Origin: a gamma proteobacterium symbiont of Ctena orbiculata
GTDB lineage: Bacteria; Pseudomonadota; Gammaproteobacteria; Chromatiales; Chromatiaceae
Direction: 5' to 3'
DNA length: 41,871 bases
Assembly (NCBI GenBank): GCA_003094555.1
Contig: NATW01000105.1
Location: forward strand, 1 to 41,871
Below the pieces are notes generated by a model that saw only the letters and a list, made by a program, of their open reading frames with translations, searched no databases and was not told the origin of the DNA. The position numbers and the translations under genes were made by a program. This document shows positions 38,223 through 41,871 of this stretch, piece by piece. The number at the start of each line of letters is the position of its first letter. Positions within the stretch are counted from its first letter, which is position 1.

Positions 38223-38262
38223 ATGATTTCAGGCCCTAATCAGCCATGGATTGAACCCCGGG

Positions 38263-38457
38263 TCAGGTCAACCGGTTTTTTATATGCAGGGCGATCCATT
38301 TACGGTAGTAGCCCAGCAGTGGAAGCAAACCCGGCCAGAACGGTACACCCCGCTTGAGCAGCGGAAGAAAGGGTAAGGCATAGAGAAACAGTCTCGATGG
38401 ACTGAGGTAGCTGTTACTCGATGCAGTTTGTTGGTTGTTATGTGTTGTCGTTTTCAT
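38263..38457 (-). CDS. 64-residue membrane miniprotein, coupled to the GT2-HAD gene
   Basis: I do not recognise this family. The ATG (38457-38455) overlaps the stop of the GT2-HAD gene as ATGA, the usual sign of translational coupling, which supports a real gene. The product begins with a polar Thr/Asn/Ser-rich 20 residues, then a hydrophobic, proline-rich segment (LFLYALPFLPLL and FWPGLLPLLGYY) split by a charged KRG turn, and ends basic (RKWIALHIKNRLT). This suggests two short membrane helices or a re-entrant hairpin. It may be a membrane anchor or partner of the large upstream enzyme. It is the last gene of its operon. Confidence 0.65.
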   Translation of the reverse strand: MKTTTHNNQQTASSNSYLSPSRLFLYALPFLPLLKRGVPFWPGLLPLLGYYRKWIALHIKNRLT

Positions 38458-41400
38458 GAGTGTCTTACCACTTTCAAGACCCTGAACATGAAGTTCCATG
38501 CTTTGGTGGGGAGGTCGACAAACATGGCTGCCTTCCAGGGTGCATTGAGCAGGTTGTGCCATACCGCGCGTGGGTGAAACAGCACACCACCAAGTCTGAT
38601 GGGTGGTGCTTTCAGGTTCAGGATATTCTCATGGCCGAAGTCTTCACTGTGGGCAAGCCCGGTAATATGCTCAACCTCGTCTCTGGTGGGATAGATAATG
38701 GATCGCTCGAGGAGGGCGAAACCATACGGCCGCAGTTGAGCGAAGTCCAATCCCGTCAAGCGGTGGGCATTGATAAACGCCTCGGTGCTCGACAGGATAC
38801 CGGTATGGATCTGTTTGATTGATTCATTGCAATGAATCTCTGCTATTCGGTCTGCGGTGTCATCCTGTTTGAGGATGGGTGATATGGTTCCCTCATCATC
38901 CGCATAACCCAGGGTGGTCGCTTCCAGGGATCGCGCGCCCTGTTCAAAGAGCTCCTCGAACTCGGCGGCGGTTTTGAATGCCTCTTGGTCACTGTTGGCG
39001 TCATACAGCAGGCCGTGCACCCGGTTATCCTTGCCGAACTCTTTATGGATCTTGCCGACGAACGCGAAATAGTAACCGGACATTTTCGGGAAGTCGTGGC
39101 GATGGCCAAATGCGCGCTTGAGATATTTCTGGATCGTGCCGTTCCAGCCGATGTCCACAAAGGCGATGTTGTGGTGGGTGAAGAAACCCATTTGCTCCAG
39201 GTAGCGTTCCAGCCGTTCCTGGCAAAGGGTGCCGTATGCGCTGATTTTGGCCTGCACTTCCGGATCATCGAGAAAACTCTTGAGGCGTCTGTCCCGGTGA
39301 TCGGTGAGAGGTTTATCCATCGCTTTGAAACCGTGGCGATGGGCATGTGCTTCGAACTCATCCCTGTCCAGGCCGAAGGTTTTCAATATCGATAGCAGTC
39401 CCTGCTGTTTTGGATTGAAGAGTGCCATACGGGCCTGATCGAGCGTCATGCCCTGACTGATGGATGCGGCCATGATGGTCTTTCTGGATGCATAGAGATA
39501 GTCGCCCTGGGGACAATCATCCCCCTTCCACAGCTGGTAGAGCTGTTGAAAAATAAAGCCGTCTCTGGCAACGAAAAAGAGCTTGTCGATCCGATCCCGT
39601 CTGACAGCCTCAATCAAACCGGCCATGAAAATATTGAATACAGGTGCCAGCTGATGACGCCCATATCGATAGAAAAAGCTGTTTTCCTCCTGGCTGTCAG
39701 CCTGTTGTGCCAGTAGCGCATCGTATACCTGTGAAAACCACATGCCAGGCCAGGGGCCGCCGTGGTGACACATTTCGTGATGCAGCGCCTGATGCCTGCG
39801 TCGAATCAATTCATGTTTTTCATGCAGATGCAGGCCAACCCCGCCCTGAGTCAGCAATGCCTGACTGTCGGAGATCGGATTGTCTCCGATATGCAGCAGC
39901 TCCTCCGGACTCCATCCATGTTGTTCCAGGATATGCTGAAACAGTTTGCCTGAGTGTTTGCATAGGCCCGATTCTGAAGAGACGTGGAGTTCATCCAGCT
40001 TGTGCAGTAATCCTTTATCACTCAGGATCTCCTGGATATGTCGTTCTCCAAGATACATATCCGAGGTGGCGATCAGGGTAAGATCCTGCTGTTTGATCCA
40101 GTCCAGCAACTCAAGCATGCCGGGTTTGACATACAGGGCGAGACACTCCATCTCGACTTCGATCTTGTGGATCAGGGTTGCCAGCCGCTGCTTGGGAATC
40201 CCGGCATCCAGCTGTTCCACCCAATCATCCACCAGATCGTTGAAATGGCACTCACCGTCACCCCTGTTTTCCCGCGCCAGCGTGCGCAGGTGTAGTTCCG
40301 CTTTTTGCCGTGCCTGGCATGCGCTTGCAGCGGTATGGTCTCCGCCCAGGATTGCCGCAAGTTCACGACATACCGCCATCTGTACCGCTTCAGGGGGTTC
40401 GATGACCCGGGCCAGCAGGGTGTCAAAGATATCGAATGAGACACATTTGAGCCGGTGGCGATTTTTAAGGATGAATGCCTGGGTCTCCTGTATGTCGTGT
40501 ATCCGATGTTCTTTTCTGTTGAGGAAGCGTGTCAGCCGATTTCGGACGCGCTGAATAGGACTTACAATTTTGTTTCCCAGGCGGTACGAGGTGCTGTTAT
40601 AGATGGTGGATATCTGCTGTTGGTAATTCTGCTCGAGTTGTCTTTTGTTCTCTTCGATATGTTGTGTAAGTGAGGCGATCTGTTGTTGATGAGCTGTCTC
40701 TTTTTGCTCAATCGTGGCCTGCACATTGTCACCAAGCCAGTCTAACTGTTGTTTGATGAGGGAAAGATTAGTGTCGCGATACTGCCGGGAATGGGCAAAT
40801 ATTTCAGGTGTCGATCCGCTCAATAGTTGAAAGGTTTCTATAATCGCCGCAACCGGGTTCTCCTGGATGGTGTTCGCGCCGTGTATGCGGTATTGCACCA
40901 GAGCGCTGTCGTCCAGCAGGTCGGTCTTGCGCCCCGCGAGTATCAGTCTCAAGACGAATTCATAGTCGTGTACGTAGCGGTAATCGGCGAATCCGCCGTG
41001 CTTGTCGTATACCTCGCGGCTGAAGAAGAAATTCGATGTGGTAATCAGCAGATTACCCTTGCACAAAGCGGTCAGGAGTTGCTTGTTTTCCCGATAGGTC
41101 TCGAGCAGTCCTGAGTACCACTGGTTCCAGTAGCTGTCCGGGTCATCCATGGGTGAGCCATCGGCGCTGATCGGTTGCACTCTGGTTGCCAGGAAGGCAA
41201 TCCCTTCCTCTGTTGCCTTGGTATAGAGTTTTTGTAACCTGTCCGGACTGTAGGTGTCATCCGAATTGAGTATCGTCAGGAAATCACCCTTCGCCTGGGC
41301 CAGTCCCTCGTTGATGGTGGTGTGGGCGCCCAGATTTCGCTCATGTCGGGTAGCGTGAATTCGTTTGTCGGTGTAATCGTCGATCACAGGCCAGGATTCA

Positions 41401-41528
41401 TCCTGGGAACAGTCGTCGATGATGATCAGTTCCCAATCACTGAAGGATTGCCGGATGACACTTTCGATCGCCTGCGCAATGTAGCGTGCATGGTTATAGC
41501 AGGGGATGATAACGCTGATTGCTGGCAT
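38454..41528 (-). CDS. GT2 glycosyltransferase fused to HAD-type domain and COG5610-like C-terminus
   Basis: This 1024-residue protein has four parts. Residues 1-230 are a GT2 (GT-A) domain: ISVIIPCYNHARYIAQAIES, ELIIIDDCSQDES, the donor-metal site LNSDD (87-91) and GGFADYRYVHDYEFVLRL. Residues 255-345 form a Gln/Glu-rich coiled-coil linker. Residues 360-580 are a HAD-superfamily domain with VSFDIFDTLLAR (Asp366), LIATSDMY, the CKHSGK lysine and LLHIGDNPISD. Residues 600-1024 are a COG5610-like region with LFFVARDGFIFQQLYQL and FVDIGWNGTIQKYLK. In motif I the second Asp is displaced (D-I-F-D-T), as in some HAD subgroups. It probably makes a glycan linkage; whether it also cleaves or transfers phosphate is unknown. 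Its ATG follows an in-frame TAG and lies 9 bp from a MITE-like element. Confidence 0.85.
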   Translation of the reverse strand: MPAISVIIPCYNHARYIAQAIESVIRQSFSDWELIIIDDCSQDESWPVIDDYTDKRIHATRHERNLGAHTTINEGLAQAKGDFLTILNSDDTYSPDRLQKLYTKATEEGIAFLATRVQPISADGSPMDDPDSYWNQWYSGLLETYRENKQLLTALCKGNLLITTSNFFFSREVYDKHGGFADYRYVHDYEFVLRLILAGRKTDLLDDSALVQYRIHGANTIQENPVAAIIETFQLLSGSTPEIFAHSRQYRDTNLSLIKQQLDWLGDNVQATIEQKETAHQQQIASLTQHIEENKRQLEQNYQQQISTIYNSTSYRLGNKIVSPIQRVRNRLTRFLNRKEHRIHDIQETQAFILKNRHRLKCVSFDIFDTLLARVIEPPEAVQMAVCRELAAILGGDHTAASACQARQKAELHLRTLARENRGDGECHFNDLVDDWVEQLDAGIPKQRLATLIHKIEVEMECLALYVKPGMLELLDWIKQQDLTLIATSDMYLGERHIQEILSDKGLLHKLDELHVSSESGLCKHSGKLFQHILEQHGWSPEELLHIGDNPISDSQALLTQGGVGLHLHEKHELIRRRHQALHHEMCHHGGPWPGMWFSQVYDALLAQQADSQEENSFFYRYGRHQLAPVFNIFMAGLIEAVRRDRIDKLFFVARDGFIFQQLYQLWKGDDCPQGDYLYASRKTIMAASISQGMTLDQARMALFNPKQQGLLSILKTFGLDRDEFEAHAHRHGFKAMDKPLTDHRDRRLKSFLDDPEVQAKISAYGTLCQERLERYLEQMGFFTHHNIAFVDIGWNGTIQKYLKRAFGHRHDFPKMSGYYFAFVGKIHKEFGKDNRVHGLLYDANSDQEAFKTAAEFEELFEQGARSLEATTLGYADDEGTISPILKQDDTADRIAEIHCNESIKQIHTGILSSTEAFINAHRLTGLDFAQLRPYGFALLERSIIYPTRDEVEHITGLAHSEDFGHENILNLKAPPIRLGGVLFHPRAVWHNLLNAPWKAAMFVDLPTKAWNFMFRVLKVVRHS

Positions 41529-41536
41529 CTAGGGCC

Positions 41537-41871
41537 TGTTAACACTAATCCAATGCGCCCCGCAGGAAGTGCCCTTGGGGTGCGCTCTGCTGGGACTGTT
41601 TTTGCGCCCAGCAAGGCAGAATGAGCGTGGTGTAGCCCGGCTGCATGAGCGAATGATAACGCCGCTGGGCGCAAAAACAGCCCCAGCCCTTCGGGTTGCG
41701 CCCCGAAGGAAGTGCCCTTGGGGTGCGCCTGAAAAAGCGCCACTCAGCATTGCTCGTCGTTCATTTGGAGTGACCAAACTTCTCTCCTCGCGCCCGTAGG
41801 AAGTGCCCTTGGGGTGCGCTTTGATTGGCGTTTTTTCAGGCACAACAGAGTACATTGGATTAGTGTTAACA
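41537..41871. mobile_element. MITE-like element with 19-bp terminal inverted repeats
   Basis: TGTTAACACTAATCCAATG at 41537-41555 is the exact reverse complement of the last 19 bases of the window (41853-41871). The 335-bp interior has no gene. It carries two internal palindromes: arms 41589-41612/41664-41687 (24 bp, one mismatch) and 41727-41742/41826-41841 (16 bp, one mismatch). It also has three copies of a 22-bp core. Short size, TIRs and no transposase fit a non-autonomous element. The TIR may extend beyond the window, so the outer end and any target duplication cannot be defined. Confidence 0.75.
41564..41819 (+). repeat. Three direct copies of a 22-bp core repeat
   Basis: The core AGGAAGTGCCCTTGGGGTGC plus GC is identical at 41564-41585, 41707-41728 and 41798-41819. 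Each copy is preceded by a GCGCCC-type lead. Spacings (143 and 91 bp) are unequal, so it is not a CRISPR array. Confidence 0.9.

What the first reader, a model, noticed from the sequence alone, without database searches (positions are those of the whole stretch)
41537..41871. Modular MITE-like element built from TIRs, two long palindromes and three 22-bp cores
Perfect 19-bp TIRs enclose a regular architecture. A 22-bp core ends 3 bp before palindrome A's left arm (41589), the second core runs directly into palindrome B's left arm (41727), and the third lies just before B's right arm (41826). Palindrome A has 24-bp arms. The element therefore looks assembled from repeated core-plus-stem modules. 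The window ends exactly at the TIR edge, as expected if an assembly broke in a multi-copy repeat. The repeat may extend beyond base 41871, and the GGGCC before the left TIR could belong to it.
Basis: partly seen in the sequence, partly recalled or inferred. Interest (0 to 1): 0.7.

Follow-up and report, generated by a model that had tools for sequence, protein, structure and literature searches.

The report
Mobile DNA with conserved folded core
The repeat at the end of this clam-symbiont contig is one copy of a small transposon-borne element whose inside folds into the same roughly 265-base, two-armed shape in many bacterial genera, which suggests that the folded strand itself does something not yet known.

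Summary
The host belongs to Candidatus Thiodiazotropha. The full terminal repeat is GGGCCTGTTAACACTAATCCAATG (41532-41555); the contig stops five bases before the right end. Of 104 distinct end-to-end copies, 96 have TA on both sides. An 823-bp IS5-family element in other bacteria has nearly the same ends and TA, so IS5-type transposition in trans is likely; searches found no such transposase in this genome or a same-species genome.

The commonest form is 265 bp without cores; each core is an extra ~27 bp (292, 319, 345 bp with 1, 2, 3). The interior pairs into two arms ending in homologous, inverted lobes. Twenty-three divergent copies keep 95.9% of pairs (shuffled 83.0%), 56 of 84 pairs with double changes. 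In 124 lobes from further loci, adjacent G.A and A.G pairs persist in 104/122 and 105/123, beside covarying Watson-Crick pairs, so a folded single strand seems selected. The lobe occurs in 67 of 369 Gammaproteobacteria and 89 of 398 Pseudomonadota genomes (overlapping samples), with differing terminal repeats, and matched no Rfam family in the loci scanned. Its function is inferred, not shown.

The parts
41530..41531 (.). TA target site, left copy (CTA | GGGCC)
   Evidence: TA on both sides in 96 of 104 distinct end-to-end copies
41532..41555 (+). left terminal inverted repeat GGGCCTGTTAACACTAATCCAATG
41554..41580 (+). core insert 1 (27 bp relative to the orthologous G039 copy; exact register ambiguous by a few bases)
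41589..41612 (+). arm Y (palindrome A), 5' side
   Evidence: covarying stem
41608..41668 (+). lobe Y, lobe covariance model R1, 67.5 bits
41664..41687 (+). arm Y (palindrome A), 3' side
41687..41695 (+). mini-hairpin CCC-TTC-GGG between the two arms
   Evidence: CCCnnnGGG block conserved in A1
41697..41723 (+). core insert 2 (27 bp)
41724..41746 (+). arm X (palindrome B), one side
41743..41799 (-). lobe X, which runs into core 3; covariance model R1, 49.4 bits
41788..41819 (+). core 3 (26-bp insert within this 32-nt repeat)
41822..41844 (+). arm X (palindrome B), other side
41853..41871 (-). right terminal inverted repeat; its last five bases (GGCCC) and the second TA lie beyond the contig end
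38230..38238 (.). remnant site: a 265-bp copy is present here in the same-species genome G039 (L288 17945-18209) and absent in the window

Best explanation
Shown by comparison: this is one copy of a MITE family, commonest length 265 bp, with IS5-type ends and TA flanks (mostly Y-TA...TA-R). Its interior is a conserved fold: two long hairpin arms around a CCC-n3-GGG mini-hairpin, each arm ending in the same kind of lobe, usually in opposite orientation; stems change by compensatory double changes while the lobe keeps an adjacent G.A and A.G pair, an AA bulge and an AAC bulge. The 823-bp IS partner carries no such lobe where tested. Inferred: transposition is done in trans by an IS5-family transposase that reads only the ends, so the ends differ between hosts while the interior does not. 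Inferred: the folded single strand (read-through RNA, or single-stranded DNA during replication) is the working form; each lobe is a protein-recognition hairpin for a widely conserved partner, and the inverted doubling puts one lobe in the working sense on either strand, making the element orientation-independent. Cores are secondary ~27-bp inserts, and solitary end repeats are remnants of imprecise loss (shown at six sites, inferred for the rest).
For: Ends and TA. IS5-family partner, three 823-bp copies with near-identical ends and TA: Pfam DUF4096 and DDE_Tnp_1 over their cut-offs, NF033580 at 137.6 bits over 110 for the second frame, 100.9 under it for the first. Fold: 84 pairs, 56 with double changes; 95.9% paired against 83.0 +- 0.4 in 500 shuffles, 37-46% when slid; in 52 representatives below 85% identity, 89 of 96 pairs have double changes. 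Non-canonical core in 124 lobes from 82 further loci (two of them, L295, are the same place as L186, one of whose lobes helped build the model): G.A 104/122, A.G 105/123, G.A 115/124, with covarying neighbours such as GC 70, CG 24, TA 14, AT 6 of 124. Strand preference with pairs found on both strands: arm X G.T 62 v A.C 29 (26 v 8 sequences, nominal p 0.003), arm Y 40 v 65 (12 v 25, nominal p 0.047), terminal stem 44 v 49: each arm leans to its own lobe-sense strand. Spread: 67 of 369 and 89 of 398 genomes. Similar length with differing ends.
Against: No transcript, protein partner or phenotype was tested. No clean empty site appears in the ten site alignments, so present-day transposition in this species is not shown. 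No IS5_3 transposase match in own genome or G039 and no similarity to the query transposases near 30 loci with GGGCGTGTTGATC-type ends. The Y-arm strand preference vanishes when only pairs at least 80% Watson-Crick are counted (24 v 28), and the sequences are related, so the p-values are nominal. Sense lobes fold better than antisense (96 v 24) but shuffled lobes do so too (80 v 41), so part of that is base composition. Minimum-energy folds of some single copies (L014, L147, L161, L166) are one long hairpin rather than two arms. DNA hairpin-templated correction could produce some of the stem covariation. The second tandem G.A pair (positions 3-4) is kept in only about half of the lobes.
Confidence: 0.68

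Rival explanations
1. Ordinary MITE: the interior is passive, and palindromic arms stay paired only because DNA hairpins template their own correction during replication.
For: Arms are close to perfectly paired in many copies; remnants show that hairpin-prone deletion happens at these loci.
Against: Self-correction would turn the G.A and A.G positions into Watson-Crick pairs, yet they persist in 104/122, 105/123 and 115/124 lobes beside covarying pairs; length stays near 265 bp in many genera.
Confidence: 0.17
2. The lobes are double-stranded binding sites (for a transposase or nucleoid protein), read as direct repeats GAGCG...GAGCGA, and the G.A pairs are a by-product.
For: GAGCG and GAGCGA recur about 24 nt apart in the lobe consensus.
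Against: Neighbouring positions covary as pairs, not as repeats (positions 1, 5 and 9; position 9 also has 30 A.A of 124); arm X shows G.T over A.C on the lobe-sense strand. The ends vary between hosts while the lobes do not, which argues against a transposase site.
Confidence: 0.12
3. The arms work as transcription terminators or mRNA-stabilising hairpins and have no specific partner.
For: Two terminator-like sites in one 265-bp copy against 0.5 +- 0.8 in shuffles.
Against: The T-tract is lost in some copies (e.g. L172), and a terminator does not need the conserved bulges and G.A pairs.
Confidence: 0.12
4. The 340-bp form with three cores in the window is partly an assembly chimera of other copies.
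For: The last 166 bp are identical in contigs C78 and C57, and the orthologous G039 copy has no cores.
Against: Core 1 ends 49 bp from unique flank, and two 345-bp copies with three cores occur in the single-contig genome G039.
Confidence: 0.2

Closest known systems
MITEs of IS5-family insertion sequences
   Same: short, non-coding, terminal inverted repeats, TA target duplication, many whole and broken copies in one genome
   Different: interior is a conserved fold found in many genera with differing ends, and is not seen in the IS partner tested here
ERIC, Correia and QMITE2-type elements (compared from passages of the review PMC10969869, of PMC4853749, and recall)
   Same: palindromic repeats predicted to fold in transcripts
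   Different: as far as I recall those are reported from narrower host groups; the present lobe is found in 58 of 271 Gammaproteobacteria genera sampled, as pairs in an element of about 265 bp
Integron attC sites and IS110 bridge RNA (recalled, considered only)
   Same: folded strand with loops or bulges
   Different: I read no RYYYAAC/GTTRRRY boxes and no variable guide loops in the lobe consensus; ends and TA duplication are those of a DDE element

Membership tests
MITE | terminal inverted repeats shared by many copies | tested here: met
MITE | target site duplication | tested here: met
   TA on both sides in 96 of 104 copies, no TA criterion used; empty sites not seen
MITE | no transposase gene, mobilised in trans by an autonomous partner with the same ends | tested here: inconclusive
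   partner with near-identical ends found in other genera and a shortened relative in another Thiodiazotropha (L237); none found in own genome; mobilisation itself not tested
IS5 family (partner) | DDE transposase of the IS5 group | tested here: met
   PF13340, PF01609, and NF033580 over its cut-off for the second reading frame; assignment to the IS427 group is recalled, not tested
MITE by internal deletion of its IS | interior derived from the partner | tested here: not met
   lobe model R1 hits neither L128 nor L196 (L226 was not scanned); no similarity to five query transposase frames in L294-L380
Known Rfam RNA | match to a family at its gathering score | tested here: not met
   window stretch 41400-41871: best hits far under gathering score (26.5 against 142 bits); 14 and 10 further loci gave only tRNAs
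Integron attC | R and L boxes recombined by an integron integrase | not tested
   considered by eye on the lobe consensus only

The most novel reading that the evidence does not exclude
A superfamily of structured selfish elements spanning the Pseudomonadota: a ~265-nt folded strand with a conserved tandem-G.A lobe that has outlived and exchanged its transposon ends, working as an orientation-independent RNA or single-stranded DNA device that captures a conserved host protein to secure its own upkeep.
Probability: 0.45. Interest if true: 0.87.

Novelty: new variant of a known kind. Interest (0 to 1): 0.7.

Why it matters
Bacterial MITEs are usually taken as transposon ends around filler. Here the filler is the conserved part: fold, approximate length and lobe are kept across Gamma- and Zetaproteobacteria while the ends change. 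That makes it testable whether small parasitic elements carry functional folded nucleic acids, and gives a covariance model with which they can be found.

Tried and rejected
Core-plus-stem assembly: rejected, since 265-bp copies without cores are the commonest (34 of 104). Solitary end repeats as regulatory motifs near gene starts: considered, then replaced by remnants, since in 6 of the 10 site alignments printed one genome has an end-to-end copy where the other keeps only part of an end; in four of these six some flank is missing too. Of the other four, L077 and L079 stayed unclear and two sites (window 41532, L008) were filled in both. Transposase in the own genome: protein query and NF033580 gave nothing; the family model did ring in 8 of 14 control genomes. 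Preference for one fixed strand: a first count suggested it, but pairs had been predicted on that strand only; the two-strand control changed the reading to a lobe-sense preference (one search used a faulty column range for arm Y). Lobe in viral contigs: exact pattern, 0 hits. E. coli: no match to the 265-bp element. Gene context from ORFs is unreliable because masked bases were read through; not used. Literature: the end strings gave no paper and four other term searches gave none; three listed 7, 4 and 4 papers, of which I opened two, as passages only (PMC4853749; PMC10969869), and saw no matching element there. The library lacks most subscription journals, so absence from print is not claimed.

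Rows dropped before counts: only end pairs 25-420 bp apart with up to 4 mismatches were taken, so 104 includes short deletion forms and one Desulfovibrio element with an unrelated interior (L188). In one search, copies from that list outside 255-285 bp were left out, boundary-scan loci were admitted at any length, and 92 candidates were cut to 52 below 85% identity; orientation is uncertain for the most divergent. L152, L166 and L179 were left out of A1. A3 uses 31 of the 46 lobes listed (near-duplicates, L204, L209_X and L120_Y left out). Boundaries: 4 of 29 loci unresolved (TA favoured in the score) and 32 of 54 below 16 of 18 matching end bases (TA required on at least one side), so TA in those two calls is partly by construction, without any TA criterion, 11 of 16 end pairs have TA on both sides.

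Full report
What is there. The window is a whole contig of a 4.07-Mb genome. Its genus is Candidatus Thiodiazotropha, sulfur-oxidising symbionts of lucinid clams (the life style is recalled): same-genus genomes G010 and G016 have contigs of the same lengths as named records of Ca. T. endolucinida (297,909 bp) and Ca. T. endoloripes (1,221,007 bp). At up to one mismatch the 18-base end occurs in 21 of 39 genomes searched, own included, all 21 in this genus; the 18 others had none. The insertion lies 3 bp upstream of the start codon of a 1024-aa reading frame on the minus strand (38454-41528), whose first 299 residues match family 2 glycosyltransferases.

Copies and ends. The genome holds 77 matches to the end at up to 2 mismatches. 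Among loci fetched up to there are 104 distinct end-to-end copies, short deletion forms included; TA stands on both sides in 96, most often CTA/TAG (40), TTA/TAG (22), CTA/TAA (20), TTA/TAA (10). Copies with no, one, two and three cores peak at 265 (34 copies), 292 (13), 319 (6) and 345 bp (2). Each core adds about 27 bp at one of a few places that mostly read GGCGC or GGCGT, and often the same five bases follow the core, though not always. One copy has five cores in tandem (L021).

Partner. Three 823-bp elements (Pelomonas, a Burkholderiales MAG, a Xylophilus MAG) have nearly the same ends (one end exact, the other with 2, 2 and 3 changes in 18) and TA flanks; the Pelomonas copy reaches its contig end. 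Their two overlapping frames match DUF4096 and DDE_Tnp_1 and the IS5-family model NF033580 (the Burkholderiales copy was the one scanned, the other two are 82-95% identical to it by tblastn). Three Xanthomonas cissicola contigs end in a close relative (L182, L183, L205). In the host genus NF033580 matches 5 of 22 genomes, over the cut-off in 1, and neither the own genome nor the same-species genome G039. A shortened relative with ends GGGCCTGTTGACACTAAA lies in another Thiodiazotropha (L237). The family looks stranded here; other transposases as movers are not excluded.

Remnants. Solitary ends, about 30 in the own genome by my hand count, look like remnants. Site alignments with G039 show an end-to-end copy against a remnant at L002/L251, L012/L252, L035/L284, L084/L271, L085/L258 and at window 38230. 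Short direct repeats sit at several junctions (CACTAA at L002/L251, ACTA at L085/L258, CAGGnCCTA at 38230; read by eye), which fits slipped deletion. No clean empty site was seen in the ten alignments. The window copy itself is present in G039 as the plain 265-bp form, so cores were gained here or lost there, or the contig end is partly chimeric.

The fold. Most long copies printed are predicted to fold into a terminal stem, arm X, a mini-hairpin CCC-n3-GGG and arm Y; a few (L014, L147, L161, L166) are predicted as one long hairpin instead (output was cut). One 265-bp copy as single-stranded DNA scores z -15.4 against shuffles, which a palindrome would give anyway. The evidence for selection is comparative. 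Twenty-three copies from Gammaproteobacteria, Zetaproteobacteria and unplaced Proteobacteria (alignment A1, mean column identity 81%) give 84 pairs, 56 with compensatory double changes; 95.9% of cells pair against 83.0 +- 0.4 in shuffles, 0 of 500 as high, and 37-46% when partners are slid. In 52 representatives under 85% identity 89 of 96 pairs show double changes. Arm X and arm Y end in homologous lobes, CCAnCAAGGC...GAGCG..GTnTnG.....CnAnATGAGCGA.....AACGCCGnTGG, nearly always in opposite orientation; L307, L354 and L365 have them in the same orientation.

The lobe core. Reading the inner helix pair by pair, the 31 lobes used for the model keep G.A (28), A.G (28), G-C (29) and G.A (29). In 124 matches from 82 further loci the same positions hold 104/122, 105/123, 104/121 and 115/124, while a neighbour covaries (position 5: GC 70, CG 24, TA 14, AT 6); the AAC bulge is 123, 124 and 120 of 124. 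A second tandem at positions 3-4 is kept in about half and otherwise replaced largely by Watson-Crick pairs. These matches come from a search with a model of the lobe, so they lean towards its sequence, but G.A was not modelled as a pair there. Duplex DNA has no G.A pairs to preserve, so this points to a folded single strand. With pairs predicted on both strands, arm X prefers G.T to A.C on its lobe-sense strand (62 v 29) and arm Y leans the other way (40 v 65), the terminal stem shows neither (44 v 49); the arm Y lean is lost at the strictest cut-off. Sense lobes fold better than antisense in 96 against 24 of 122 by RNA parameters and 84 against 35 by DNA parameters, but composition alone gives 80 against 41 in shuffles with RNA parameters.

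Spread. The lobe model R1 (E up to 1e-5, at most 13-14 candidates scored per genome) matches 67 of 369 Gammaproteobacteria genomes, 58 of 271 genera, and 89 of 398 Pseudomonadota genomes, 44 of 213 genera; the two samples overlap. Genomes G032, G037 and G038 have at least 14 lobes each but no match to the Thiodiazotropha end at up to one mismatch. Ends found elsewhere include GGGCCTGTTCACACTA, GGGCGTGTTGATCTTTG, GGCTCTGTTGACGTTTAC, GGGGCTGTTCTCAATG, GGGTCTGTTGACGTTT and GAACCTATCTCAAAA. In one search, 25 of 29 loci gave matching ends, 14 of 29 with TA on both sides in the register scored, 22 of 54, of which 12 are 264-267 bp. Both scans favoured TA. Without that criterion, in two genomes with GGGCGTGTTGATC-type ends, 12 of 16 end pairs are 263-264 bp and 11 have TA on both sides. 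Plasmid records with similar DNA belong to Azotobacter, Halomonas and Methylophaga, and with a relative from another genome as query also to Pseudomonas aeruginosa. No Rfam family matched the element in the loci scanned.

How it probably works. The ends are handled by an IS5-type transposase; the interior is kept for what its folded strand does. Because the two lobes are inverted, any transcript or single strand through the element has one lobe in the working sense. The most economical idea is a protein-recognition hairpin for a conserved partner. This step is inference, at about even odds. Passive palindromes, duplex binding sites and terminator function are the rivals.

Verdict. A MITE, so a known kind, but with a conserved structured interior of unexpected breadth: new variant of a known kind.

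Noticed in passing
L289 534-663, L040 551-743 (own genome C116, C45); also L290, L291 (C146, C191): Four core-like copies (one exact, three with 1 mismatch) lie at places where the end repeat was not found. Two sit inside other large palindromes whose arms share GTGTACCTC / GAGGTACAC (L289, L040); no inverted arms were found around L290 and L291. The core seems to enter more than one repeat family.
   Followed up: partly
L383, L385-L390, L392, L393: Exact core copies occur in 8 of 185 Gammaproteobacteria genomes, own included. Of these nine loci only L393 has a lobe match nearby, so the core also exists as an independent micro-repeat.
   Followed up: partly
L311, L312: Lobe elements of another family carry a short insert GTGCCCTnGGGGTATAAC in the lobe, resembling the core.
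   Followed up: no
L416 and other places in G720: In a genome with ends GAGCGTGTTGATCTTTG, besides 264-bp copies there are 335-bp copies.
   Followed up: no
L209 687-949: The lobe in arm X is inverted relative to the other 22 copies of A1, as if the whole hairpin had flipped.
   Followed up: no
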